In this document: positions 41,566-60,400 of the stretch, one piece after another
How positions within the stretch are numbered: the first letter of the stretch is position 1
How the letters are laid out: each line of letters begins with the position of its first letter
Origin: Cliona cf. orientalis
Lineage: Eukaryota; Porifera; Demospongiae; Clionaida; Clionaidae
Assembly: GCA_963930775.1 (NCBI GenBank)
Contig: OZ005693.1
Coordinates: 4,588,001 to 4,652,000 of the forward strand
DNA length: 64,000 bases
Direction of reading: 5' to 3'
Translations under genes and position numbers: made by a program
The notes under the pieces: generated by a model
What the model saw: the letters and a program-made list of their open reading frames with translations, nothing else
Databases searched by the model: none
What the model was told of the DNA's origin: nothing

Positions 41566-43431
41566 TTATGAATCAAGATCTTCTGAATCATAATCTGGAG
41601 TAGGTGATCTCATCAAATTTCGTCGGTGAAATATTTCCTCTACCACACTTTGATCGTAAGGTCTGTCATCTCTCTCTCTGTATTTGTATCGCTTAGCCAT
41701 GATGGAAAACACAATGAAGCCAAACAGAGCGACAACAATTGTGAACAAAAAGTAGGTGAAACAACAATTAGTAACTGGAGGGTGCTCTCTTATGCTACCT
41801 TTAGACCAAATACTGTCCGAAGAAATGGGAACAAGGGCAATGGAGCTGATCAGCTGAAAGAAACCTTTAATGGCAAAGAAGACTCCAATGAGGAGACCTT
41901 TCATAGAGTGAGGGCTTTGAGCTGAGATGAACTCAAGAACTGTAGCCATGATAATTGGTGGACCCATAGCAAGAAGAACGTTTGGAAGAATAAGCACTCC
42001 CCAATGCATCTTAAGAATAGGGTATGTCAAAGCATGCGCATTATTCGCCCTTGTGTATGAGAACATGCAGTGGCTACCAGTGCCTAGATCATCCACGGAG
42101 TGAAGGTGACCTGCTAGGTCAATGGCCAGCATAGACACAGTGCCAAGGATATAAAGAACTAAGCCTGCATGCAAGCGTGTGGTTATTGATATCCTGTAGC
42201 TACGCAATACTATGAAAGCGTAAAAAGGTAAGAAGATGGATGCAATTGTGTACCTCAGGGCACTACTCTCAAAGATTGCCCAAATTTTACAGCGGCTGAT
42301 AAAGTCTTCCCTATTACCAGTATGAAGTCCAAACGTTTTGAATCCAATATAAGAGGTAGGAACTTCCATCACAAAAGTTGCACCAAGACTGAGAAGCAAT
42401 GTAAAGATCCGCAAAAATGCTTTAACATCTTCTACTTGTTCAGTTGTGAAAGGTCCTCCATACCTTGACTTAGCAAAGTCTATTCTAGATGGCCTTTCAT
42501 CATCACAGTAAGTGAAGGCACTGCGTTGAAGTGGGTACTTGTGCTTTCTGGCAAAGTTGAGCACCTTAAGCACATTCCGGTACGGATTACGATGACCGGG
42601 CTCAGTGTAGAACCATTGCCGCTTACAACAAGTTATGATTAATAGAAATGGAATACTAAATACAATTAGAATCGGTAAAGCACTGAAAGCAATTTTAACT
42701 GTAATTTGTGATGTTGGACACTCAAGCAGTGCACCACCAATGTCCATAAGGGCTGTTCCCAAAACATTTGCCCAAATTGCCAAGTGAATAAAGATGCTAA
42801 GACCTCTACTCGGGGTATCCATAAGTTGGTCCAGCCCCAACTGAATGAAGTTTGCCTGAAAGGCTACAACACCGAATAGTGACAGACATAATGTACCAAA
42901 GCCAATGAAGTAGACAGGAGCAACTTCTTTAAAAGGATATTCTTGAAGGAGGGGTTTTGATATATGATGGCCAAATTTTGTTATAGTACCAAGCCAAACA
43001 AGAATAACAATTAAGGTGGAAAAACAGAATACAAGAAAGCCAAGACCAATCATGACCATCTTGAATCGTCCACAATACACATCAGCTAGAAAACCACCGA
43101 GTGGATAAAACATAGCAATCACTGCTAGTATAGCATAGACAAAAGCCAAGGGAGACGATACTGAATTGGCAAAATGATAACTTTCTTTATTACTAAAAGG
43201 CACGTAGTTTGCAATAAATCCCCCAATCAGTAATTGCTCGAAAGCAAGTACCTCACCAACAATCATTGTCCACACCAGAATGAGTACAACAGCTTTGTGC
43301 TGTAGATAAACTTGTCTGCAACAAAATCTGATATCATCACAGTATTTGCGATGAGGAACCTTTGAGTTTGTGTCACTCTTGCATAATTTTGAAAGCAATG
43401 GTTGAGTTTCACGATCCACCATTATTAGCAA
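41566..43431 (-). CDS. POT/SLC15-like proton-coupled transporter, single exon
   Basis: A 621-aa MFS protein with about 12 hydrophobic segments. The PTR/POT signature is visible: FYPLGGFLADVYCGRFKMV (loop 2-3, A-D-x-x-x-G-R-F) at ~111-129, the central loop RSAFTYCDDERPSR-D and YGGPFTTEQVEDVK, and the later LEFISAQSPHSMKGLLIGVF segment. POT members carry di/tripeptides, histidine or nitrate with protons. The TM1 region reads GEVLAFEQLLIGG, so the usual E-x-x-E-R-F coupling motif is altered (Q for R), and substrate and coupling are uncertain. The N-terminus has an ETQPLL acidic dileucine-like signal, which in SLC15A3/A4-type proteins goes with endolysosomal targeting (inference). The start may be the Met at residue 4. 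It is the only intact member of three here. Confidence 0.85.
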   Translation of the reverse strand: MLIMVDRETQPLLSKLCKSDTNSKVPHRKYCDDIRFCCRQVYLQHKAVVLILVWTMIVGEVLAFEQLLIGGFIANYVPFSNKESYHFANSVSSPLAFVYAILAVIAMFYPLGGFLADVYCGRFKMVMIGLGFLVFCFSTLIVILVWLGTITKFGHHISKPLLQEYPFKEVAPVYFIGFGTLCLSLFGVVAFQANFIQLGLDQLMDTPSRGLSIFIHLAIWANVLGTALMDIGGALLECPTSQITVKIAFSALPILIVFSIPFLLIITCCKRQWFYTEPGHRNPYRNVLKVLNFARKHKYPLQRSAFTYCDDERPSRIDFAKSRYGGPFTTEQVEDVKAFLRIFTLLLSLGATFVMEVPTSYIGFKTFGLHTGNREDFISRCKIWAIFESSALRYTIASIFLPFYAFIVLRSYRISITTRLHAGLVLYILGTVSMLAIDLAGHLHSVDDLGTGSHCMFSYTRANNAHALTYPILKMHWGVLILPNVLLAMGPPIIMATVLEFISAQSPHSMKGLLIGVFFAIKGFFQLISSIALVPISSDSIWSKGSIREHPPVTNCCFTYFLFTIVVALFGFIVFSIMAKRYKYRERDDRPYDQSVVEEIFHRRNLMRSPTPDYDSEDLDS

Positions 43432-45075: not shown

Positions 45076-45149
45076 GAATCATTCCTGAGTGAATCAAAAT
45101 CTTATGGATGTAGCTACTATCTACGGTGGCCCAGAAGGTCACTCGAGAT

Positions 45150-45530
45150 TGCACATTGGCCTTTCAATTGTGCTAAGAGATTGCACATTGGCGATTCGAA
45201 CCTCGAATCTCCAATCTCCAATCTCTTAGGACACCGTGCTAAGAGATTGCACGTTGGCGATTCGAACCTCGAATCTCCAATCTCCAATCTCTTAGGACAC
45301 CGTGCTAAGAGATTGCACGTTGGCGATTCGAACCTCGAATCTCCAATCTCCAATCTCCAATCTCTTAGGACACCGTGCTAAGAGATTGCACGTTGGCGAT
45401 TCGAACCTCGAATCTCCAATCTCCAATCTCTTAGGACACCGTGCTAAGAGATTGCACATTGGCGATTCGAACCTCGAATCTCCAATCTCTTAGGAGACCG
45501 TGCTAAGAGATTGCACATCGGTGATTCGAG
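45150..45530 (+). repeat. Tandem ~65-bp units, left arm
   Basis: About six units of AAGAGATTGCACGTTGGCGA / TTCGAACCTCGAATCTCC / AATCTCTTAGGACACCGTGCT. Units differ mainly in the number of the 7-bp AATCTCC step. Each unit is bordered by AAGAGATTG/CAATCTCTT and has an internal TTCGAACCTCGAA, so single units can fold as hairpins. Confidence 0.85.
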
Positions 45531-45702
45531 CTAGGTAGGCGCGGCTGGGGATTTCCCTCATCACACGGTCTTTAGTCGCGCATGCGCGCATATGATTCTC
45601 TGGTTGTAGTCTACCATAGCTGTACACGATCCCATCCAGAGCAGGAGAAGGAGTTTAATATATACGAGACTAGCACGTAGCCTGTGCTATTCCACCATAA
45701 GT

Positions 45703-45810
45703 TAGCAGCCATAATTCTGGCATAAGGGAACAGTCCACGCACATTCGATAATGGCCACACCCCTTGCCACAAGTGGCGCCATGGCGGATGGCACGCGCCA
45801 GCCTGCGTAT
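45703..45810 (+). repeat. ~100-bp unique segment flanking the array (left copy)
   Basis: AGCAGCCATAATTCTGGCAT through TGCCACAAGTGGCG to GCCAGCCTGCGTAT recurs directly at ~56253-56348, where it continues as GCCTGCATATTATAATAATA. The right copy therefore preserves an approximate empty site for the piggyBac array. Confidence 0.8.
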
Positions 45811-46280
45811 CCCTTTCGGTCACAAATTGTTGTAAATTTACAACAATTTTGCATGGACCGTATTTCGGCTAAATAGAGATATGAATAATTCATTGGCGGC
45901 GGTTAGGCTACCGATAAGAAAACCTGGCCCACACAATAGTCGCGGTCCCGTCGGCACTTTGAAGTGATGACGTCAAAGTGGTTTTGCTTTGAAGAAGCTT
46001 TCATCTATGCTTTGATCACTTTAAAAAAAAAAAAAAAAAAAAAAAAGCAAAAGAGTGGTGTTGTAGGCGATGTATGTGTTAGTATTGTCTCATGACTCGA
46101 TTACTTTGCTTGCATTCCCTCTCTGGGCTGCATTTGAGCTGCATCTTGAGCAACCGTTTGCAGAGATCGATAATTGGGGCGTGGCTCGTTCGGTTTCCCG
46201 GCAACAACCGCAGCCTGGTCGACCCTGTACCTAACGAAGGCCTGCTGGGTGAGCTCATGAATTTTCTGTGACCGAAAGGG
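45811..46280. repeat. Element R, copy 1
   Basis: 470 bp with 14-bp perfect inverted ends CCCTTTCGGTCACA. Just inside the left end is a perfect 26-bp palindrome (45824-45849, half-site AAATTGTTGTAAA). It contains a TGATGACGTCAAAG CRE-like site, an A24 tract and no ORF. CCC/GGG ends suit a piggyBac-type MITE. Confidence 0.85.
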
Positions 46281-46452
46281 TTAGTTGTAGATGTCTCGAG
46301 ATTTGTAAACAGCCAAAAAATGTCGGAGCTTCGTTCTAAAGACCTCGTGGACGCTTTTCAAGATAACCAAAGTGATTTAGAGAGCGGAGCGAGCTCACCA
46401 GACGAGGATTGCTTGGATTCTGACGAAGAAGTCGGACTAGGTTCTGAACCAG

Positions 46453-48361
46453 GTAAGTAGAATATTCTTACAATGGTAAAGGTTATTCCTGCTTGACAAA
46501 GCCTAAAAAGGCATATTTATACGATCTGGATCATGAAAATCTGTTGTGTGTGTGTGTGTGCATGCGCATATCGTGTGTATGTATACCATGCATGTATGTG
46601 TGTGTGGAAGTGGGCGTGCTGTGTAGGAAGTGACGTCAACTAAGTAGGGAGTGGGCACGGTCTGGGGCTAATTGATCAGTGACGTCAGCAATGGGGAGGA
46701 GCAGTGGGTGTGGTCGGGGGCCAGAACTTTCGTCAGGAAGCTTGCAATAGGCACAGAAAGTGACGTCAGCTTTAGGAGAAGTGGGCGTGGTTTGGAAGCC
46801 ACAACAGGCCTGCAATATACACAGGAAGTGACGTGAACAATGGGGAGGGGCAGTGGGCGTGGTTTTAGGGCAGGATTTCAGTCCGAAGCTTGGAATAGGC
46901 ACAGGAAGTGACGTCAGCAACGGGGAGGAGCAGTGGGCGTGGTTTGGGGCCAGGATTTCAGTTGGAAGCTTGGAATAGGCTCAGGAAGTGACTTTAGCAA
47001 TTGGGAGGAGCAGTGGGCGTGGTTTGGGGCCAGGATTTCAGTCGGAGGCTTGGAATAGGCACAGGAAGTGACGTCAGCTTTGGGAGAAGTGGGCGTGGTT
47101 TTGAGGCCACAATGGGCCTGCAGTAGGCACAGGAAGTGACGCTGATAATGGGGAGGAGCAGTGGGCGTGGTTGGGGGCCAGAATTTCAGTCGGAAGCATG
47201 GAATAGACACAGGAAGTGACGTCAGCATAGAGAGAAGTGGGTGTGGTCTGGAGGCCAGAATGGGCCTACAATAGACACAGGAAGTGACGTCAGCAATGGG
47301 GAGGGGAAGTGGGCGTGGTTTGGGGTCAGAACGGGCCTGCGATAGGCGTAGGAAGTGACGTCAGCATAGGGAGAAGTGGGCGTGGTCTGGAGGCTTGAAC
47401 GGGCATACAATAGACACAGGAAGTGACGTGAGCAATGGGGAGGGGCAGTGGGCGTGGTTTGGGTCAGAACGGACCTGCGATAGGCGTAGGAAGTGACGTC
47501 AGCATTGGGAGAAGTGGGCGTGGTCTGGAGGCTTGAACAAGCCTACAATAGGCGTAGGAAGTGACGTCAGCAATGGGGAGAAGTGGGCGTGGTCTGGAGG
47601 CTTGAACGGGCAATAGACACAGGAAGTGACGTCAGCTATGGGGAGGGGCAGTGGGCGTGGTTTGGGGTCAGAACGGGCCTGCAATAGGCGTAGGAAGTGA
47701 CGTCAGCATTGGGAGAAGTGGGCGTGGTCTGGAGGCTTGAACGGGCCTACAATAGACACAGGAAGTGACGTCAGCTATGGGGAGGGGCAGTGGGCGTGGT
47801 TTGCGGTCAGAACGGGCCTGCAATAGGCGTAGGAAGTGACGTCAGCATTGGGAGAAGTGGGCGTGGTCTGGAGGCTTGAACGGGCCTACAATAGACACAG
47901 GAAGTGACGTCAGCAATGAGAGGGGCAGTGGGCGTGGTTTGGGGCCAGGACGGGCCTGCGATAGGCGTAGGAAGTGACGTCAGCATTGGGAGAAGTGGGC
48001 GTGGCTTGGAGGCCAGAACTGGCCTGAAATAGGCTGCAGTGGGCATGGTTTAATGAGGAAGTGACATCAGCATTGGGGAGATGCAGTGGGCGTGGCCAGA
48101 ATGGGCTTACAATAAGTGATGTCAGCAGGAGCAGTGGGTGTGGCTTTGGGCCACAATCGTCTTTGGAGGCCTGTATTTGGCATGGGAAGTGACGTCAGCA
48201 GGAAGTAGGTGTGGCTTGGGCTGTCAGAAGTGGTGTAGAAGGTGATGTCATGATAAAGTGGGTGTGGTCTTGGTGTTGAATTGTGGTGCAGAACCATGTT
48301 TAAACTGGGGTTTATGTGTAACATTAATATTATAATTCATTAATATCATATTTCTCTGCAG
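46453..48361 (+). repeat. Tandem CRE/GC-box repeats filling the transposase intron, unit 1
   Basis: After a short (GT)n microsatellite, ~24 degenerate units of ~65-75 bp run from ~46620 to ~48260. The unit core is AGGAAGTGACGTCAGCA, then GGGAGAAGTGGGCGTGG, then a GGTCAGAACGGGCCTG-like spacer. Most units keep a perfect TGACGTCA (CREB/ATF site) and a GGGCGTGG (KLF/Sp/EGR-type box). Units at both ends are more decayed. Confidence 0.88.
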
Positions 48362-49203
48362 AGTGTGGTGGTGATGAATCTGATGAGGAACTTATGGCAC
48401 CTACCCGTAAGCGACGCAGATTATGTAGTGAACTTGCCCTTAAAACATCACTAGAGTCTGGGCTTTACCCTGAATTTCTTGGTGCGGAAGGGCCAGCAGA
48501 AAATCATGACCCCGAAAGTAACTCTGCCTTAGATTATCTGTTGCTGCTCTGGCCAGAATCACTCACCTCCCACATAGCTACTGAGACAAATAGGTATGCT
48601 AGGCAGAGGAATCGTGTCAATTGGGTAGATGTGACAGTGGAGGAAGTATGGACTTTCTTTGGCATTCTTGTCCTAATGGGCATTCACAGGCTTCCACGAG
48701 TTAGGAATTATTGGAGCACAGACCGTTTACTTGGTCTGGAGCCTATACAACAGTCCATGTCCCTCAATAGGTTTTGGGCAATATGGTCCAACCTCCATGT
48801 GGTAGATAATGACACAATTCCACCTGGTGGTGTTGGTCCCTCTCGCAAGATTAAGCCTATTGTAGATGTTCTGAACCAGACATTTTTAAAACAATACAGC
48901 CCTGGACAGGAGCTAGCCATTGATGAATCCATGGTTAAGTACAAAGGTCACTGTAAAGGGAAGGTGCGTATGCCCAAAAAACCTATTAAGTTAGGCTACA
49001 AGGTTTGGTGCTGCTCCTGTTCTTGCTGTGGTTACTTATGCACTTTTCAGTTCTATGATGGCAGGCCTGTGGACATAGCCACTGGTGAGAAGCTGCCTGA
49101 GAAGGGCTTAGTAAAGAGAGTGGTCACAGACCTATTGCTTCCATTTGTAGGCACAAATCATGTTGTGTACTGCGACAATTTCTACACTAGTGGACCCCTA
49201 GTT

Positions 49204-49536
49204 CAGGGGCGGATCCAGGGGGGGTCATGGGGGGCAGATGACCCCCCCTTCCAGGCCTGAATATCTTGTACCAGCTTGCTGTGCTTGGCTAAATAGCCAG
49301 CTGTACCACCCTCACTTCAACTAATGAACCTTGATCTGACACAAAATATGGCTAAAACCTGTTTGTAGGATGAAAAAGTCGAGTTCCATTGACATCTCGG
49401 GCTGTTTGTCTCGTTCGCGGCAACAATGTGGGCGTGGTCTTCACAAAAGTGGGCGTGGCCAAAAATTTCGCGCGCGCTTCGCGCGCGATTATTTACTTGA
49501 TGACCCCCCCTACCTGATGTCCTGGATCCGCCCCTG
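49204..49536. repeat. MITE nested in transposase exon 2, unit 1
   Basis: 333 bp with perfect 16-bp inverted ends CAGGGGCGGATCCAGG and a direct TAGTT at 49199-49203 and 49537-49541. The interior has a CGCGCGCGCTTCGCGCGCG palindrome and two GTGGGCGTGG motifs. The insertion adds 338 nt and so also shifts the frame. Confidence 0.9.
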
Positions 49537-50467
49537 TAGTTGACATGTTGGCTAAGGATGAAATATTTATAGTTGGAAGTATTCAAAGGAGAGCAGCAGG
49601 TTTCCCAGATAGCTTGAGGACAGTGGCACCACCAAAGGGTAGCTACGTATCAGAGAGTGTAGATGGGAAGCAGTATTTTGTATTCAATGATCGCAAGCTT
49701 GTTAGCTTTGTTACTAATGTGTTTCCAGAGACTATGAACAGTAAAGTGTTCAGGCTTCAGCCTGAGGGTGTTCTGAGGGAGCAGTCAGTTCCCCCACTCT
49801 TACCAGCCTATAATAAGTACATGGGTGCTGTTGATCTCACTGATCAGCTGATGAGGACCTATGGTTTTGATAGGAAATCCAAGCGTTGCTGGCTTCGGCC
49901 ATTCCTTTTTTGTTTTGATGTGTCAACAAATAATGCCCATATTCTCTATAAACACAACTGTAAACGATGTGGTGTCAAACCAAAGGATTTGCTTGGATTT
50001 CGTTTGGATCTAGCACGTTTGCTATTACAATTTGGCAGCAGTTCTAAGGCACAGAGTAGTGTGAATAAGGGTAAGGCCCAAGATGTTAGTGTTTGTTGTC
50101 TAAGTAGAGTTAGTGACATAGGCCTAAAGAGGGGTAGGTGCCACCAATGTATCAAGATGAAGAGGAAGAGGCACACTTCATTTGGATGTTCTGTGTGTAA
50201 AATTAGACTATGCAAGATCAGATGTTTTCAAGAATATCATAATATGTAGTTACTGTTAGTAATTATTAATATATTTTTAGCAACCAAGTGTCCATGCATT
50301 ACTATCTAATATGACTCTAATATGACTGGAAAATGTGTGATTTTATTTTATGTATGTATTTTAATCCACCTTGACATAATAAATTTAATCTATCTTGATG
50401 TAATAATAATTATGATGGTATATGAGGTATACAACACATCCACACATGTGCAGGGAGTGGAATTTAA

Positions 50468-50937
50468 CCCTTTCGGTCACAAATTGTTGTAAATTTACAA
50501 CAATTTTGCATGGACCGTATTTCGGCTAAATAGAGATATGAATAATTCATTGGCGGCGGTTAGGCTACCGATAAGAAAACCTGGCCCACACAATAGTCGC
50601 GGTCCCGTCGGCACTTTGAAGTGATGACGTCAAAGTGGTTTTGCTTTGAAGAAGCTTTCATCTATGCTTTGATCACTTTAAAAAAAAAAAAAAAAAAAAA
50701 AAAGCAAAAGAGTGGTGTTGTAGGCGATGTATGTGTTAGTATTGTCTCATGACTCGATTACTTTGCTTGCATTCCCTCTCTGGGCTGCATTTGAGCTGCA
50801 TCTTGAGCAACCGTTTGCAGAGATCGATAATTGGGGCGTGGCTCGTTCGGTTTCCCGGCAACAACCGCAGCCTGGTCGACCCTGTACCTAACGAAGGCCT
50901 GCTGGGTGAGCTCATGAATTTTCTGTGACCGAAAGGG
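50468..50937. repeat. Element R, copy 2
   Basis: No difference from copy 1 seen by eye, including the A24 homopolymer. It is preceded by TTTAA and followed by TTAGTTG. Confidence 0.85.
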
Positions 50938-51109
50938 TTAGTTGTAGATGTCTCGAGATTTGTAAACAGCCAAAAAATGTCGGAGCTTCGTTCTAAAGAC
51001 CTCGTGGACGCTTTTCAAGATAACCAAAGTGATTTAGAGAGCGGAGCGAGCTCACCAGACGAGGATTGCTTGGATTCTGACGAAGAAGTCGGACTAGGTT
51101 CTGAACCAG

Positions 51110-53018
51110 GTAAGTAGAATATTCTTACAATGGTAAAGGTTATTCCTGCTTGACAAAGCCTAAAAAGGCATATTTATACGATCTGGATCATGAAAATCTG
51201 TTGTGTGTGTGTGTGTGCATGCGCATATCGTGTGTATGTATACCATGCATGTATGTGTGTGTGGAAGTGGGCGTGCTGTGTAGGAAGTGACGTCAACTAA
51301 GTAGGGAGTGGGCACGGTCTGGGGCTAATTGATCAGTGACGTCAGCAATGGGGAGGAGCAGTGGGTGTGGTCGGGGGCCAGAACTTTCGTCAGGAAGCTT
51401 GCAATAGGCACAGAAAGTGACGTCAGCTTTAGGAGAAGTGGGCGTGGTTTGGAAGCCACAACAGGCCTGCAATATACACAGGAAGTGACGTGAACAATGG
51501 GGAGGGGCAGTGGGCGTGGTTTTAGGGCAGGATTTCAGTCCGAAGCTTGGAATAGGCACAGGAAGTGACGTCAGCAACGGGGAGGAGCAGTGGGCGTGGT
51601 TTGGGGCCAGGATTTCAGTTGGAAGCTTGGAATAGGCTCAGGAAGTGACTTTAGCAATTGGGAGGAGCAGTGGGCGTGGTTTGGGGCCAGGATTTCAGTC
51701 GGAGGCTTGGAATAGGCACAGGAAGTGACGTCAGCTTTGGGAGAAGTGGGCGTGGTTTTGAGGCCACAATGGGCCTGCAGTAGGCACAGGAAGTGACGCT
51801 GATAATGGGGAGGAGCAGTGGGCGTGGTTGGGGGCCAGAATTTCAGTCGGAAGCATGGAATAGACACAGGAAGTGACGTCAGCATAGAGAGAAGTGGGTG
51901 TGGTCTGGAGGCCAGAATGGGCCTACAATAGACACAGGAAGTGACGTCAGCAATGGGGAGGGGAAGTGGGCGTGGTTTGGGGTCAGAACGGGCCTGCGAT
52001 AGGCGTAGGAAGTGACGTCAGCATAGGGAGAAGTGGGCGTGGTCTGGAGGCTTGAACGGGCATACAATAGACACAGGAAGTGACGTGAGCAATGGGGAGG
52101 GGCAGTGGGCGTGGTTTGGGTCAGAACGGACCTGCGATAGGCGTAGGAAGTGACGTCAGCATTGGGAGAAGTGGGCGTGGTCTGGAGGCTTGAACAAGCC
52201 TACAATAGGCGTAGGAAGTGACGTCAGCAATGGGGAGAAGTGGGCGTGGTCTGGAGGCTTGAACGGGCAATAGACACAGGAAGTGACGTCAGCTATGGGG
52301 AGGGGCAGTGGGCGTGGTTTGGGGTCAGAACGGGCCTGCAATAGGCGTAGGAAGTGACGTCAGCATTGGGAGAAGTGGGCGTGGTCTGGAGGCTTGAACG
52401 GGCCTACAATAGACACAGGAAGTGACGTCAGCTATGGGGAGGGGCAGTGGGCGTGGTTTGCGGTCAGAACGGGCCTGCAATAGGCGTAGGAAGTGACGTC
52501 AGCATTGGGAGAAGTGGGCGTGGTCTGGAGGCTTGAACGGGCCTACAATAGACACAGGAAGTGACGTCAGCAATGAGAGGGGCAGTGGGCGTGGTTTGGG
52601 GCCAGGACGGGCCTGCGATAGGCGTAGGAAGTGACGTCAGCATTGGGAGAAGTGGGCGTGGCTTGGAGGCCAGAACTGGCCTGAAATAGGCTGCAGTGGG
52701 CATGGTTTAATGAGGAAGTGACATCAGCATTGGGGAGATGCAGTGGGCGTGGCCAGAATGGGCTTACAATAAGTGATGTCAGCAGGAGCAGTGGGTGTGG
52801 CTTTGGGCCACAATCGTCTTTGGAGGCCTGTATTTGGCATGGGAAGTGACGTCAGCAGGAAGTAGGTGTGGCTTGGGCTGTCAGAAGTGGTGTAGAAGGT
52901 GATGTCATGATAAAGTGGGTGTGGTCTTGGTGTTGAATTGTGGTGCAGAACCATGTTTAAACTGGGGTTTATGTGTAACATTAATATTATAATTCATTAA
53001 TATCATATTTCTCTGCAG
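51110..53018 (+). repeat. Tandem CRE/GC-box repeats, unit 2 intron
   Basis: The second copy of the intron array has the same length and, by eye, the same sequence as unit 1. Tandem arrays normally diverge fast in unit number, so the identity implies a very recent duplication or an assembly duplication. Confidence 0.85.
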
Positions 53019-53860
53019 AGTGTGGTGGTGATGAATCTGATGAGGAACTTATGGCACCTACCCGTAAGCGACGCAGATTATGTAGTGAACTTGCCCTTAA
53101 AACATCACTAGAGTCTGGGCTTTACCCTGAATTTCTTGGTGCGGAAGGGCCAGCAGAAAATCATGACCCCGAAAGTAACTCTGCCTTAGATTATCTGTTG
53201 CTGCTCTGGCCAGAATCACTCACCTCCCACATAGCTACTGAGACAAATAGGTATGCTAGGCAGAGGAATCGTGTCAATTGGGTAGATGTGACAGTGGAGG
53301 AAGTATGGACTTTCTTTGGCATTCTTGTCCTAATGGGCATTCACAGGCTTCCACGAGTTAGGAATTATTGGAGCACAGACCGTTTACTTGGTCTGGAGCC
53401 TATACAACAGTCCATGTCCCTCAATAGGTTTTGGGCAATATGGTCCAACCTCCATGTGGTAGATAATGACACAATTCCACCTGGTGGTGTTGGTCCCTCT
53501 CGCAAGATTAAGCCTATTGTAGATGTTCTGAACCAGACATTTTTAAAACAATACAGCCCTGGACAGGAGCTAGCCATTGATGAATCCATGGTTAAGTACA
53601 AAGGTCACTGTAAAGGGAAGGTGCGTATGCCCAAAAAACCTATTAAGTTAGGCTACAAGGTTTGGTGCTGCTCCTGTTCTTGCTGTGGTTACTTATGCAC
53701 TTTTCAGTTCTATGATGGCAGGCCTGTGGACATAGCCACTGGTGAGAAGCTGCCTGAGAAGGGCTTAGTAAAGAGAGTGGTCACAGACCTATTGCTTCCA
53801 TTTGTAGGCACAAATCATGTTGTGTACTGCGACAATTTCTACACTAGTGGACCCCTAGTT

Positions 53861-54193
53861 CAGGGGCGGATCCAGGGGGGGTCATGGGGGGCAGATGACC
53901 CCCCCTTCCAGGCCTGAATATCTTGTACCAGCTTGCTGTGCTTGGCTAAATAGCCAGCTGTACCACCCTCACTTCAACTAATGAACCTTGATCTGACACA
54001 AAATATGGCTAAAACCTGTTTGTAGGATGAAAAAGTCGAGTTCCATTGACATCTCGGGCTGTTTGTCTCGTTCGCGGCAACAATGTGGGCGTGGTCTTCA
54101 CAAAAGTGGGCGTGGCCAAAAATTTCGCGCGCGCTTCGCGCGCGATTATTTACTTGATGACCCCCCCTACCTGATGTCCTGGATCCGCCCCTG
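53861..54193. repeat. MITE nested in transposase exon 2, unit 2
   Basis: Same 333-bp element, ends and TAGTT duplication as in unit 1, shifted by 4,657 bp. Confidence 0.9.
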
Positions 54194-55124
54194 TAGTTGA
54201 CATGTTGGCTAAGGATGAAATATTTATAGTTGGAAGTATTCAAAGGAGAGCAGCAGGTTTCCCAGATAGCTTGAGGACAGTGGCACCACCAAAGGGTAGC
54301 TACGTATCAGAGAGTGTAGATGGGAAGCAGTATTTTGTATTCAATGATCGCAAGCTTGTTAGCTTTGTTACTAATGTGTTTCCAGAGACTATGAACAGTA
54401 AAGTGTTCAGGCTTCAGCCTGAGGGTGTTCTGAGGGAGCAGTCAGTTCCCCCACTCTTACCAGCCTATAATAAGTACATGGGTGCTGTTGATCTCACTGA
54501 TCAGCTGATGAGGACCTATGGTTTTGATAGGAAATCCAAGCGTTGCTGGCTTCGGCCATTCCTTTTTTGTTTTGATGTGTCAACAAATAATGCCCATATT
54601 CTCTATAAACACAACTGTAAACGATGTGGTGTCAAACCAAAGGATTTGCTTGGATTTCGTTTGGATCTAGCACGTTTGCTATTACAATTTGGCAGCAGTT
54701 CTAAGGCACAGAGTAGTGTGAATAAGGGTAAGGCCCAAGATGTTAGTGTTTGTTGTCTAAGTAGAGTTAGTGACATAGGCCTAAAGAGGGGTAGGTGCCA
54801 CCAATGTATCAAGATGAAGAGGAAGAGGCACACTTCATTTGGATGTTCTGTGTGTAAAATTAGACTATGCAAGATCAGATGTTTTCAAGAATATCATAAT
54901 ATGTAGTTACTGTTAGTAATTATTAATATATTTTTAGCAACCAAGTGTCCATGCATTACTATCTAATATGACTCTAATATGACTGGAAAATGTGTGATTT
55001 TATTTTATGTATGTATTTTAATCCACCTTGACATAATAAATTTAATCTATCTTGATGTAATAATAATTATGATGGTATATGAGGTATACAACACATCCAC
55101 ACATGTGCAGGGAGTGGAATTTAA

Positions 55125-55594
55125 CCCTTTCGGTCACAAATTGTTGTAAATTTACAACAATTTTGCATGGACCGTATTTCGGCTAAATAGAGATATGAAT
55201 AATTCATTGGCGGCGGTTAGGCTACCGATAAGAAAACCTGGCCCACACAATAGTCGCGGTCCCGTCGGCACTTTGAAGTGATGACGTCAAAGTGGTTTTG
55301 CTTTGAAGAAGCTTTCATCTATGCTTTGATCACTTTAAAAAAAAAAAAAAAAAAAAAAAAGCAAAAGAGTGGTGTTGTAGGCGATGTATGTGTTAGTATT
55401 GTCTCATGACTCGATTACTTTGCTTGCATTCCCTCTCTGGGCTGCATTTGAGCTGCATCTTGAGCAACCGTTTGCAGAGATCGATAATTGGGGCGTGGCT
55501 CGTTCGGTTTCCCGGCAACAACCGCAGCCTGGTCGACCCTGTACCTAACGAAGGCCTGCTGGGTGAGCTCATGAATTTTCTGTGACCGAAAGGG
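55125..55594. repeat. Element R, copy 3
   Basis: 470 bp, with the same A24 tract as copies 1 and 2. The left side joins TTTAA of transposase unit 2; the right side joins GTATAATAG, the sequence continuing the left flank GCCTGCGTAT. Confidence 0.85.
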
Positions 55595-55606
55595 GTATAA
55601 TAGTAA

Positions 55607-56630
55607 GCTAATTGCCAATGTGCAATCTCTTAGCACGGTGTCCTAAGAGATTGGAGATTCGAGGTTCGCAATATGCTAGCCTCATCTACGTAGTCCCCAG
55701 GCTCTCTCGGAGGCCTGGGAACGAGGCTTGCAATGTGTATTCTCTTAGAGAAGGTGTCCTAAGGCTAAGAGATTCGAGAGTCGAGGTTTTCTAATCGCCA
55801 ATGTGCAATCTCTTAGCATGGTGTCCTAAGAGATTGGAGATTCGAGGTTCGAATCGCCAATGTGCAATCTCTTAGCATGGTGTCCTAAGAGATTGGAGAT
55901 TCGAGATTCGAGGTTCGAATCGCCAATGTGCAATCTCTTAGCATGCTGTACATGTCCTAAGAGATTGGAGATTCGAGGTTCGAATCGCCAATGTGCAATC
56001 TCTTAGCATGATGTCCTAAGAGATTGGAGATTGGAGATTCGAGGTTCGAATCGCCAATGTGCAATCTCTTCTAATAGCACGGTGTCCTAAGAGATTGGAG
56101 ATTCGAGATTCGAGGTTCGAATCGCCAACGTGCAATCTCTTAGCACGGTGTCCTAAGAGATTGGAGATTGGAGATTCGAGGTTCGAATCGCCAACGTGCA
56201 ATCTCTTAGCACAATCGAAAGGCCAATGTGCAATCTCGAGTGACGTCAGATGAGCAGCCATAATTCTGGCATAAGCGAACGGTCCACGCGCATTCGATAA
56301 TGGCCACACCCCTTGCCACAAGTGGCGGATGGCGCGCGCCAGCCTGCATATTATAATAATAATAAGTCTCGAGCGAATCGCCAATGTGCAATCTCTTAGC
56401 ACGGTGTCCTAAGAGATTGGAGATTGGAGATTCGAGGTTCGAATCGCCAACGTGCAATCTCTTAGCACGGTGTCCTAAGAGATTGGAGATTGGAGATTCG
56501 AGGTTCGAATCGCCAACGTGCAATCTCTTAGCACGGTGTCCTAAGAGATTGGAGATTGGAGATTCGAGGTTCGAATCGCCAATGTGCAATCTCTTAGCAC
56601 AATCGAAAGGCCAATGTGCTATCTCGGGTG
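55607..56630 (-). repeat. Tandem ~65-bp units, right arm
   Basis: About ten units in reverse orientation to the left arm, with core CCTAAGAGATTGGAGATTCG / AGGTTCGAATCGCCAACGTG / CAATCTCTTAGCACGGTGT. They are interrupted at ~56240-56380 by the ~100-bp segment also found at 45703. Each unit carries GGTTCGAATCG, close to the tRNA/pol III B-box consensus. Confidence 0.82.
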
Positions 56631-56758
56631 ACCTTCTGGGCCACCGTAGCTACATGTTCCTAAAAACGTGCTCTCTGTTCGTTTAATTAGAGAGAGAAAT
56701 TTATTTTGCCGTGTCAGCAAAATGAGTAACAAAGTAGCTGTGACCGTTATCTTGTAGC

Positions 56759-57413
56759 TGTAATAACTTCTCCCTTTTATATAGGTAGCTAGCTGTCTTA
56801 AATTACACTTACTTCCCAGCCTGTTCAGTGTAGCAATCGCTTTGAGCGGTGCGACGAGTCTCTCCCAAACAATTTCATTTCACAAAAACCGAGAGTGATC
56901 ACGAGACTAACTGATGACATAATATGACGCAACAAAATTCAATTAATAATAGCAAGAGTAAATAATAAGGAGGGGAAGAGAGTATCGAACGCGCTATATA
57001 CTCCGTACAAGATGTTTTCGGAAAGTCACGCGCCAGGAATTCAAAAATTGACCAATCAGAGCGCTCGATTCAATGGTACGTTGTGGGCGTGGCCTCGAGT
57101 GCAAGCTAACGCGAGCGCGATTTTGACCGAAAGCACGAGCAGATCACAATATTATAAGACGAGCGTTTATGAAGAATCTAGCATAAAACTCATAAAAAAC
57201 GCCTCTATTCTTCTCAGTTTTAAGAAAAATCAAGTGTTTAGCCCCTTGGGCTAGTCACGTGCGCACGGCTGCAAGTCACGTTACTTGCCGAAAACATATT
57301 ACACGGGGTATATAGCGCGTTCGACACTCTCTTCCCCTCCTTATTATTTACTCTTGATAATAGTGATACAATACTCAATAAGTAGTTCAGAGTTTGATTC
57401 AAAGTTCCTCACA
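56759..57413 (-). repeat. 3' LTR, split by a MITE
   Basis: Equivalent to the 5' LTR at 62986-63229 once the 404-bp insert and its 7-bp duplication are removed (244 bp remain). The stop codon of the polyprotein lies in its first bases. Confidence 0.9.
56953..57356. repeat. MITE inside the BEL 3' LTR
   Basis: Inverted ends of ~50 bp start CAAGAGTAAATAATAAGG. ATAATAG is duplicated at 56946-56952 and 57357-57363, and the 5' LTR shows the unfilled site. An older split relative sits in P450 C intron sequence at 29270-30447. The interior has no intact frame. Confidence 0.9.
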
Positions 57414-60400
57414 CTCCCCCGGGTTGACCCAAGTCAGGGTCAACATCAGAGTCCTCGGTGAGTTCTGCAGCCCACCTCTTAAACTTTTCTTTAGCCCGGG
57501 TAGCTGCACTGCGTGTCAATCTCGTTTGAGTCGGCTCTACTGTTGGAATGGTTGTGGCCTCAGATGTCGACGTGGTCGTGATTTCAGTCTCATCTCCTTG
57601 AATGCCACGTGACCCTTCTGCGAGCTCGTTCTCAAGAGGGTGACTAATCTCCAAAGGGTATAGTGCTTGAACTGGTCTCCTTAGTGTGGTTGGTCGCCCA
57701 GTTGGAGTAGATAAACGTATCTCTGCTCCTCTGACATTGTTATCCTTGCTATCAAGTAGCTTCATTACTCGGGCCAACCTCCAGAACCCACGGGGCTTGT
57801 CTTGATCTTCGAGGAGCACCACATCTCCGACCTTAATGGGTGGTCTATCCTTAGATGCTTGACGTCTATGAGATTCTCTTAACTCCAGTAGGTACTCGCG
57901 GCTCCAGCGGCGCCAAAAGTGGTTGAGGACACTATTAAGGTACCTTACCCTTGCTTGCAGAGACTCAGTGGATATCTCAAAGTCAGGGTCGTCGTCTTCA
58001 AGGTAAGTTAGATCGTCCGGTAGACTCAGCAATCTCCTGCCAACCAGCAGATGGGAAGGTGTAAGGGGCTCCTCAATGTCAGCGCTTGATGTGTACGTGA
58101 GGGGTCTGGAGTTTAAGATCGACTCTACCTCGATGATTGCAGTATGCATCTCATCACCAGACAGTCTTGCCTGCCCAAGCATCTTACGCAAACATCTCTT
58201 GGTCGATTTAACAAGTCGCTCAAACAGGCCACCCCACCAGGGGGCCTTCTCCAAGTTAAAGTTCCATTCCACCTTTAGGTTCAGTAGATGATCCTTAACA
58301 TCAGGGTGATTCAACATGGATTCGATGGCTTTAGCGGCGGCCTTAAAGGTCTTTGCATTATCAGAAATGATCCTTCTGGGGAGACCTCTCCTGGCTGTAA
58401 ACCTCTTCAAGCAGCGGATGAACGCCGAAGTGGACAACTCATTCACCATTTCCAGATGGATGGCTCTAGTCACACAACAAGTGAATAAACAAATCCATAC
58501 CTTCCTTTCCCCCGAGCTGTTTGTTCCCCGCACATAGAGAGGTCCAGCGAAGTCGACTGCTGCATGAGTGAAGGGGGGTGCCTCGTTCACTCTAAATCCT
58601 GGGAGTGGTGGTGCTGGGGGTGCACTGTAAGGCAATCCTTCAAAACGGCGGCAGGTGACACATCTGCCAATGAGTTGTTTCACCAGGCTTCTTCCCTTGA
58701 GGATCCAAAACTTGCCACGCACTTCTGAGAGGGTTTCCTTCACTCCATTGTGCTGAACCCTCGAATGGGCACTGGCTACGATCAGCTTAGTTAAACCGTG
58801 GGTCCGGTCCAGAAGTATAGGGTGCACTGTAGAAAAGGGTAATTTCGTATTCTGAAGCCTTCCTCCACACCTCCAAATCTGGTTGCCATCCTGGAAGAGT
58901 CCAAATTGCGCCTTCCAATGGGTGAAGTTCTTATCCTTCTCCAGACCCAGCTGATTGTCCTTAATCCACAGCAGCTCAGCTTCATGTAAATCCTGAGTGG
59001 TGAGTCCAGCCTTAGACTTCTTCCGAAGAATCTTGAGAAACTTGATAATGTAAGCTGTTACCCGGTACAACTTGTGTAGGGCTTCAAAACGCTCGGCTTC
59101 AATTGCATTACTCACAGTTGGAACTTGTCCACAACTAATCAAAGTGTGAGCCTTCATTTCAGCAGTGCACGGCTCTGGCAAGTCATCCGATAGCTGGACA
59201 TTTTCAGGAATTTGTACGAGGTCAGGGCCTTCTCTCCAGAGTGTGTTCCTTGAGAGCTCCTCTGTCGTAAGACCTCTGGTTGGAAGGTCGGCAGGGTTCA
59301 GCGTACCAGGGCAGTGACTCCAGCTTGATACAGGGACACTTTCACGGATTTCGTTAACTCTGTTCTGCACAAAGGGCTTCCAATCTTTGTCCAGCCCAAC
59401 AATCCAGCACAGTGCGACCCTGCTATCTGTGAAGCACTTGGGTGGTAGTAGAGGGAGTCTGCTTCTTAGGCTTTCACTGACAGTGCTGATCAGTCGAGCT
59501 AGCAGTAGAGCGGATAACAACTCCAACCTGGGGATGGTTTGTGGCTTAATGGGTGCTACTCGTGTTTTGGCCACCACGAAACTCAGGCTCGTTCCGTGCT
59601 CACCCTCTTCACCTAAGTAGATCACTGCTGCGTATGCCATGGTCGAGGCGTCACAGAAGCCATACAATCGGTACCGCACCGAACTATTCACGGGGCCGGA
59701 GAGTGAACATCTTGGCAGAGTCAACAGAGGCCCACTTCTCAACTGGTCCACAAGCTTGCTCCACTTAGTCAAGGTATCACCACTTAGCTTCTCATCCCAG
59801 CCCAGCTTCGACTTGAATAGCTCCTGCATGTAGATCTTGAAAGATATAGTAGTAGGAGATAGATACCCCAAAGGGTCGTAGAACCTCCCGATGATGCTAA
59901 TGACATTTCTCTTCGTGGGGAGCAACTCGTCCGCGATAGCGGCAACTTCTCGGAAGTCGAATAGGAGACCATCACTTCTCACATTCCAACGTACCCCTAA
60001 AACTTTGTGTTCTCCATGTTGAAGGGTTGTGTTTCCAGGAAGGGAGGCTCCTGCATAGGTTTCGTCGAGTGGTTCTGTGCCGCCAGTATCCAGAGGGGTG
60101 CTTGGTGGCTCTTCTTGTTCAACCTTGGCTTGGAGGGAAGGCAGGTTCGACATGAACTTCCGGAGGTTGAATGATCCTGCCGCTAACATTTGCTTAGATT
60201 CCTTGTAGAACTTGTGGGCCTGCTCCGCAGTGTCAGCTCCTCCAACCACATCATCGACATAAATAGACTTGAGTAGCTTCCCCACCACTGTGGGTTGCGC
60301 TTCAGCATACTTCTTGACATGGTGTTGTAGGGTCGCATTCAACAAGAACGGGCTCGAAGAGACACCAAACACAACTCTAGAGAATCTGAGAGTGACAATC

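What the first reader, a model, noticed from the sequence alone, without database searches (positions are those of the whole stretch)
45811..55594. piggyBac transposase genes flanked by direct copies of a compact inverted-end element, behaving like a composite transposon
Each 470-bp R element has its own CCCTTTCGGTCACA inverted ends. R copies bracket both transposase units, so the array's outer ends are also an inverted pair. The whole 9,784 bp is bordered by GTAT on both sides, and a related segment at 56253-56348 continues through the corresponding site without the array. This suggests that the array, not single units, was the inserted object, or that an R-T-R element inserted and then expanded by unequal exchange. 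Animal piggyBac elements normally have one transposase between two ends and duplicate TTAA; here TTAA/TTAG appears only at the inner junctions.
Basis: partly seen in the sequence, partly recalled or inferred. Interest (0 to 1): 0.75.

Follow-up and report, generated by a model that had tools for sequence, protein, structure and literature searches.

The report
Composite piggyBac transposon with paired ends

Summary
Three identical 470-bp R copies bracket two identical 4,187-bp T units in an R-T-R-T-R array of 9,784 bp, with GTAT on both sides. Paralogous host repeats read through the site with a single GTAT (6 of 6 fetched pass through, 4 exactly), so GTAT is a target-site duplication.

R-T-R recurs genome-wide: 7 further loci (6 independent insertions), 4 T-R, 1 bare T, 1 damaged long-R version, 6 solo R. 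Inner junctions are constant in R-T-R (GGG|TTAG, TTTAA|CCC); outer flanks differ. Of 19 tabulated insertions, 13 have equal outer 4-mers, 8 of these TTAA. T is one intron-containing piggyBac transposase gene, 560 aa in two unbroken copies; both window copies are broken by one shared insert.

Best explanation: a eukaryotic composite transposon moved by its outermost R ends. Single R copies also excise, leaving T-R or T. The array arose by R-R recombination. KolobokP (PMC9587614) has the same architecture in another superfamily, with a homing endonuclease. This one is piggyBac, with no second protein detected. I saw no piggyBac case in the listings I searched.

The parts
45807..45810 (.). left target-site duplication GTAT
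   Evidence: sequence; empty-site paralogs carry a single GTAT
45811..46280 (+). R1, 470-bp terminal repeat with its own 14-bp inverted ends
   Evidence: 25 full-length R matches in the genome
46281..50467 (+). T1, internal transposase unit (begins TTAG, ends TTTAA)
   Evidence: 15 T copies in the genome
46320..46452 (+). T1 exon 1, ATG 40 bp right of R1, donor GTAAG
   Evidence: sequence and spliced translation; splice sites inferred, no RNA evidence
48362..50249 (+). T1 exon 2, piggyBac DDE_Tnp_1_7 domain, interrupted by an insert at 49204-49536
49204..49536 (.). 333-bp MITE-like insert (ends CAGGGGCGGATCCAGG) with TAGTT on both sides; found only in the two window T copies; breaks the transposase
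50468..50937 (+). R2, shared middle R
50938..55124 (+). T2, identical to T1, same insert at 53861-54193
55125..55594 (+). R3, right terminal R
55595..55598 (.). right target-site duplication GTAT
45118..45535 (.). left arm of the inverted-repeat host element into which the array inserted
55608..56652 (.). right arm of the host element, with an array-free relative of the insertion site at 56253-56348

Best explanation
This is a eukaryotic composite DNA transposon of the piggyBac superfamily. A piggyBac transposase gene (T) is carried between two direct copies of a complete, self-bounded 470-bp MITE-like element (R). (1) Transposase made from intact T copies acts on the outermost inverted ends and moves R-T-R as one unit into TTAA or near-TTAA targets. 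Unit insertion is shown for the window array and for L041 by empty sites, and for the other loci by constant inner junctions and mostly equal outer 4-mers. That T's own product does the work is inferred. (2) The same enzyme can take one R at a time, because each R has both ends. This yields solo R elsewhere and leaves T-R, then bare T, behind. This is inferred from scars at the exact position. (3) The two R of a composite are kept alike by recombination or conversion, and R-R unequal exchange makes multimers such as the window's R-T-R-T-R. Likeness is shown for 4 of 7 composites; the process is inferred.
For: Unit insertion: the inner junctions are the same in all 7 R-T-R loci and the window, while the outer flanks differ except in the duplicate pair L015/L016. 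Outer 4-mers are equal in 13 of 19 tabulated insertions, 5 of those not TTAA (window GTAT, L047 and L035 ATAA, L025 TTAT, L026 ATAT). The window's empty site is passed by 6 of 6 fetched paralogs, 4 exactly. The L041 composite sits in a short repeat with 429 matches (215 forward, 214 reverse, up to 3 mismatches); nearly all of the copies listed read TTAA at the site, one TTAG. Enzyme: 560-aa protein, PF13843 E 4.1e-75; piggyBat E 1.7e-34, with the aspartate-bearing segments aligned. R mobility: 6 solo R. T-R copies read ATAA (L024), TTAA (L040), ATAA (L010) and ATAAG (L029) before TTGTAG; bare T L023 has TTAG...TTAA. Excision by piggyBac is seamless and tolerant of flanking sequence (passages of PMC7351741). 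R pairing: 4 of 7 composites have identical R pairs, permutation P 0.0024; L019 has a private base in both R, L022 two shared variants. Array: both T copies carry the same insert.
Against: Six of 19 insertions have unequal outer 4-mers: L009, L014, L046, L021, L041 and L017. Studied piggyBac integrates in cells overwhelmingly at TTAA (PMC7351741 passages), so the matched GTAT, ATAA, TTAT and ATAT sites are unusual. L041 also has unlike R copies. The R-pair signal is weaker on substitutions alone (P 0.048) or A-run length alone (P 0.14 with L041). All four T-R copies keep the outer 4-mer rather than TTAG, a one-in-sixteen outcome if repair picks sides at random, and T-R outnumbers R-T 4 to 0; both could mean that T-R moves as a unit with a cryptic left end. 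No assay links T's protein to R ends, and about 110 other listed piggyBac matches (some are pieces of one copy) show that other transposases may act on R. The two identical T copies could be an assembly duplication, which I could not check against reads.
Confidence: 0.83

Rival explanations
1. R is only a MITE that happened to insert on both sides of a host or orphan piggyBac gene; the composite spread passively by segmental duplication and not by transposition.
For: L015 and L016 have identical flanks in opposite orientation, so one pair of loci is a segmental duplication.
Against: The other R-T-R loci have unrelated flanks that start exactly at R ends, mostly with equal 4-mers, and empty sites exist for the window array and L041.
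Confidence: 0.04
2. T-R, not R-T-R, is the basic mobile unit: T's left terminus TTGTAGATG is a real but divergent transposon end, and left R copies were added later.
For: Three of four T-R copies have the same 4 bp directly before TTGTAG and after the right R (ATAA, TTAA, ATAA); no R-T copy was found among 15 T copies.
Against: TTGTAGATG has no CCC-type end. L029 retains an extra G, the last base of the inner TTAG, as a possible scar. Bare T (L023) starts with TTAG. One KolobokP family shows the same internal-plus-right-repeat excess (40 to 6), which its authors attribute mainly to excision of one repeat; a second family there has 1 to 1 (section 8 of PMC9587614).
Confidence: 0.17
3. New R-T-R copies arise mainly when a circular T-R, made by R-R recombination, recombines into a solo R, so that the duplications belong to solo R insertions and R-T-R itself seldom transposes.
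For: Solo R is about as common as R-T-R (6 versus 7 loci); R pairs tend to be alike; the window multimer suggests that R-R exchange happens.
Against: A private variant in the left part of both R of L019 needs extra conversion; direct transposition needs only known piggyBac chemistry.
Confidence: 0.12

Closest known systems
KolobokP composite-like DNA transposons (Kojima and Bao 2022, PMC9587614)
   Same: Internal transposase unit between two long terminal direct repeats, each with its own short inverted ends; repeat length about 450 bp in one of two classes; solo repeats; (repeat-internal)n-repeat multimers; in one family an excess of internal-plus-right-repeat copies (40 to 6) and 3 bare internals; excision scars that lose a few bases on one side.
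   Different: KolobokP has a Kolobok transposase, 5'-RR/YY-3' termini, a His-Me homing endonuclease, duplications of 3-5 bp and no strong target preference. Here the transposase is piggyBac, the termini are CCC...GGG, the targets are mostly TTAA-like, and no second protein was detected.
Canonical piggyBac and piggyBat elements
   Same: DDE_Tnp_1_7 transposase, CCC-type ends, 4-bp targets that are mostly TTAA, apparently precise excision.
   Different: Canonical elements have one gene between one left and one right end (recalled); here the gene lies between two complete elements. Equal but non-TTAA 4-mers (GTAT, ATAA, TTAT, ATAT) make up 5 of 13 equal pairs.
CMITE-IN and tandem CMITE arrays of corals (PMC2872659)
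   Same: piggyBac-type MITEs at TTAA; a new mobile element made by a MITE insertion; tandem MITE arrays.
   Different: In CMITE-IN one MITE sits between short direct repeats; no transposase gene carried between two MITEs is described in the sections I read.
Bacterial composite transposons (Tn5, Tn10 recalled; described in PMC9587614)
   Same: Two mobile elements bracket a segment and move it by their outer ends.
   Different: There the flanking elements encode the transposase and the middle is cargo; here the middle encodes it and no ORF of 120 aa or more lies in R.

Membership tests
piggyBac superfamily | DDE_Tnp_1_7 transposase with the conserved catalytic aspartates | tested here: met
   PF13843 E 4.1e-75; piggyBat 9c0f E 1.7e-34 and 6x67 E 1e-22 with the IDE, CDN and VD..D segments aligned. 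The catalytic role of these residues is recalled.
piggyBac superfamily | C-terminal cysteine-rich domain | tested here: inconclusive
   Cysteine-rich residues 523-559 align with piggyBat 538-574, but that stretch alone is weak (i-Evalue 3.7)
piggyBac superfamily | terminal inverted repeats starting CC[C/T] | tested here: met
   CCCTTTCGGTCACA at both ends of all 25 full R
piggyBac superfamily | 4-bp TTAA target-site duplication | tested here: inconclusive
   13 of 19 have equal 4-mers, 8 of them TTAA; 5 equal but not TTAA; 6 unequal. The length is met; the sequence is relaxed.
KolobokP | repeat-internal-repeat architecture with self-bounded repeats, solo repeats and multimers | tested here: met
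   one multimer only, the window
KolobokP | Kolobok transposase | tested here: not met
   The 560-aa product matched only PF13843 in Pfam up to E 1
KolobokP | termini 5'-RR and YY-3' | tested here: not met
   termini are CCC and GGG
KolobokP | His-Me finger endonuclease in the internal region | tested here: not met
   The 10 other frames of 70 aa or more in the L040 T unit match no Pfam family up to E 1. Shorter or split genes were not tested. A genome search for PF05551 found nothing, but its controls were silent too.
bacterial-type composite transposon | flanking elements encode the transposase | tested here: not met
   No ORF of 120 aa or more in R; the gene is in T
LTR retrotransposon | reverse transcriptase and integrase between LTRs | tested here: not met
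   The spliced product matches only PF13843 and the other frames match nothing in Pfam

The most novel reading that the evidence does not exclude
The paired-end composite architecture known from KolobokP arose a second time, in piggyBac, and is self-sustaining without a homing endonuclease. Whole R-T-R units transpose, single R copies leave as MITEs, and R-R recombination homogenises the ends, makes multimers and may rebuild R-T-R from solo R. That would be an LTR-like life cycle run entirely by a cut-and-paste enzyme.
Probability: 0.4. Interest if true: 0.74.

Novelty: new variant of a known kind. Interest (0 to 1): 0.62.

Why it matters
KolobokP was introduced as 'unlike any other DNA transposons' in having long terminal direct repeats, and its authors proposed that a homing endonuclease helps make its multimers. 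A piggyBac family with similar repeat size, solo repeats, a multimer, lopsided single-repeat loss and a bare internal copy, but with no nuclease detected, makes two points testable: whether the design arises repeatedly in unrelated cut-and-paste transposons, and whether ordinary unequal exchange is enough for multimers. It also offers a natural case of a piggyBac enzyme faced with several pairs of usable ends in one element.

Tried and rejected
Rejected: GTAT as a sign of non-piggyBac targeting; other copies use TTAA and near-TTAA. Not favoured: L023 as the ancestral host locus of T. Its right flank plus 12 bp of left flank matches a repeat that is uninterrupted in L056-L059, so T seems to have arrived there as an insertion; the left side of that match is short and the empty copies differ at 3 of the 12 bases around the site (2 if the lost 4-mer was TTAA). 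Not supported: R as an internal-deletion product of a conventional autonomous copy. No T was seen between the two halves of an R, and tblastn of the transposase against nine 'long R' interiors and fragments printed no hit, though the middle of that output was cut; a very different transposase is not excluded. Inconclusive: PF05551 search, silent in its controls as well.

A flaw found on checking: one search looked for the T right end with R bases built into the pattern, so it could hardly have found a T without R. The count now rests (pattern without R bases: 15 exact, plus 1 place with 2 mismatches that was not looked at) and on reading what follows each in the fetched loci.

Dropped rows: L016 was dropped from the R-pair permutation as the same insertion as L015, and the window entered as R1 against R3; three columns at the edges of the A-run (212, 243, 244) were left out of its substitution count, and would add differences to the already discordant L041. 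The 19 insertions count L015 and L016 separately and leave out the T-R loci, L023, L033, L044/L045, the half-R pieces (L013, L018, L020, L028, L037, L038, L043 and a second one in L017), and the places that share only the 14-mer (L011, L034, L036, L039, L042).
Full report
Observation. The window holds R-T-R-T-R: three identical 470-bp R and two identical 4,187-bp T units, from 45811 to 55594. Every R carries CCCTTTCGGTCACA and its complement as perfect ends (6 matches, all exact; 0.21 expected with 2 mismatches allowed). GTAT lies on both sides. The array sits inside an inverted-repeat host element (arms about 45118-45535 and 55608-56652). Joining the flanks with one GTAT and searching the genome gave array-free paralogs. 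All 6 fetched pass through the site, and 4 of 6 read the predicted junction exactly. The GTAT is therefore a target-site duplication, and the object bounded by R ends was inserted.

What T is. T is one gene. Exon 1 starts with ATG 40 bp right of R. An intron of about 1.9 kb in the window copies is largely tandem repeats. Exon 2 carries the transposase; the splice sites are inferred. Unbroken copies give 560 aa (L024, L040) or 569 aa (L022); the other copies were not all resolved, because the script looked for exact splice motifs. The protein is piggyBac by Pfam and by alignment to solved piggyBat and piggyBac chains. Both window copies are interrupted by the same 333-bp MITE-like insert with TAGTT on both sides, seen in no other T copy. 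The insertion therefore most likely came before the doubling, and neither window T reads through to a whole transposase.

Genome census. The exact 14-mer occurs 81 times. R gave 25 full-length matches (a lower bound, 40 of 54 candidates were scored): 3 in the window, 14 in 7 R-T-R loci, 2 in T-R loci and 6 solo. T occurs 15 times: 2 in the window, 7 in R-T-R (L015, L016, L019, L021, L022, L027, L041), 4 in T-R (L024, L040, and L010 and L029 with a long R), 1 in a damaged long-R version (L033) and 1 bare (L023). The exact T right end also occurs 15 times; R follows in 14 and not in L023. L015 and L016 share flanks and count as one insertion, so there are 6 independent R-T-R insertions besides the window. 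'Long R' copies have units of about 400 bp in the middle of R. Among composites where both R can be typed, both are short, except L033, where both are long but the left one is damaged.

Junctions. Inner junctions do not vary among the R-T-R loci: R-GGG|TTAG-TTGTAG on the left and TTTAA|CCC-R on the right. Outer 4-mers are equal in 13 of 19 tabulated insertions: 8 TTAA and 5 other. Six are unequal; five of these differ at one or two positions (for example TTAA/TTAT) and L009 reads TATA/ATAA. For L041 (TTAT/TTAA) the host repeat has 429 matches, and nearly all of those listed read TTAA at the site, so its left 4-mer changed during or after insertion. piggyBac opens its hairpins to leave 4-nt donor overhangs (PMC7351741, passages). 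Carry-over of a donor 4-mer is a possible source of such mismatches; this is my inference. The same paper stresses that studied piggyBac integrates overwhelmingly at TTAA, so the matched non-TTAA sites here are a real departure.

Loss of single R copies. Three T-R copies begin with a 4-mer equal to the right-hand 4-mer, directly joined to TTGTAG: ATAA (L024), TTAA (L040), ATAA (L010). L029 reads ATAAG against ATAA, keeping one base that could come from the inner TTAG. L023 has no R and shows TTAG on the left and TTAA on the right. This is what precise or near-precise excision of R from R-T-R would leave, and piggyBac excision is known not to need a particular flank. Against it, all four T-R copies kept the outer 4-mer and no R-T copy was found; a T-R unit with a cryptic left end is the main rival.

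Ends evolve in pairs. Across 25 full R copies, 8 columns carry substitutions outside the A-run and its edges. Four of 7 composites have identical R pairs; permutation gives P 0.0024 for that, 0.048 for substitutions and 0.14 for A-run length. Without L041 these are 0.0056, 0.033 and 0.033. L041 is discordant both in its R copies and in its flanking 4-mers. The pairing resembles that of LTRs, but conversion between near-identical neighbours is enough to explain it.

Comparison. The closest system is KolobokP (PMC9587614: abstract, sections 5, 7, 8, 14, 15 and searched passages): long terminal direct repeats with their own inverted ends, solo repeats and multimers; in one family 40 internal-plus-right copies against 6 of the reverse, and 3 bare internals (a second family has 1 and 1, and none). 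It is a Kolobok lineage with a homing endonuclease and no strong target preference, introduced as unlike any other DNA transposon. The present element works like KolobokP but fails its membership test on transposase, termini and nuclease. Coral CMITEs (PMC2872659: abstract and sections 12-14) are piggyBac-type MITEs that form tandem arrays and new elements; no transposase carried between two MITEs is described there. Searches of the held open-access library for composite transposon, macrotransposon, non-canonical targets, terminal direct repeats, long terminal direct repeats or composite elements with piggyBac, and for KolobokP, listed no piggyBac composite of this kind. Three of these listings were capped (20 of 114, 15 of 2,928 and 15 of 21 papers shown), and I judged them by title and the start of the abstract. 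Subscription papers and Repbase were not searched.

Limits. No reads, RNA or other individuals were available. DNA-search counts are lower bounds. Nothing links the T protein to R ends experimentally, and other piggyBac matches are abundant in this genome. On re-checking I lowered confidence in the best explanation from 0.84 to 0.83, because the stricter TTAA habit of studied piggyBac counts against a simple reading of the non-TTAA sites.

Noticed in passing
G000 contig C1, about 17.6-37.5 Mb: By hand count, 108 of 122 listed piggyBac (PF13843) matches lie on contig C1, about 103 of them right of 17.6 Mb; only 1 of 15 T copies is on C1 (only 116 of 414 candidates were scored). One contig half seems to be a piggyBac reservoir.
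   Followed up: no
window 49204-49536 and 53861-54193: 333-bp MITE-like insert with CAGGGGCGGATCCAGG ends and TAGTT on both sides, interrupting both transposase copies.
   Followed up: partly
G000 genome-wide; hosts L041: A short repeat with GCGCTTAATAAACAATAG-like sequence, 429 matches at up to 3 mismatches, has taken a composite at its TTAA; L040 has a similar left flank by eye. It may be a repeated landing site.
   Followed up: partly
L029 and L047: By eye, a T-R copy and a solo R sit at the same ATAA position in two copies of one repeat, which has about 40 near-full-length matches listed in the genome.
   Followed up: partly
L017, L025, L026, L031, L035, L010, L029/L030, L033: 'Long R' elements carry about one (L025, L031) to several units of a roughly 400-bp repeat between the R halves: MITEs that contain a satellite-like array. 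Unit numbers were not counted.
   Followed up: partly
L015 and L016 (contig C2): Same R-T-R insertion with identical flanks in opposite orientation about 2.8 Mb apart: an inverted segmental duplication.
   Followed up: no
window 57409-62889 (-) and 41566-43422 (-): Long ORFs that look like a BEL/Pao-type polyprotein (1,826 aa) and a peptide-transporter-like membrane protein (618 aa); names by eye from the translation, no search run.
   Followed up: no
L011, L034, L036, L039, L042: Places that share the 14-bp end but not the adjoining R sequence; L042 has TTAA next to it. Possibly other non-autonomous families using the same transposase.
   Followed up: no
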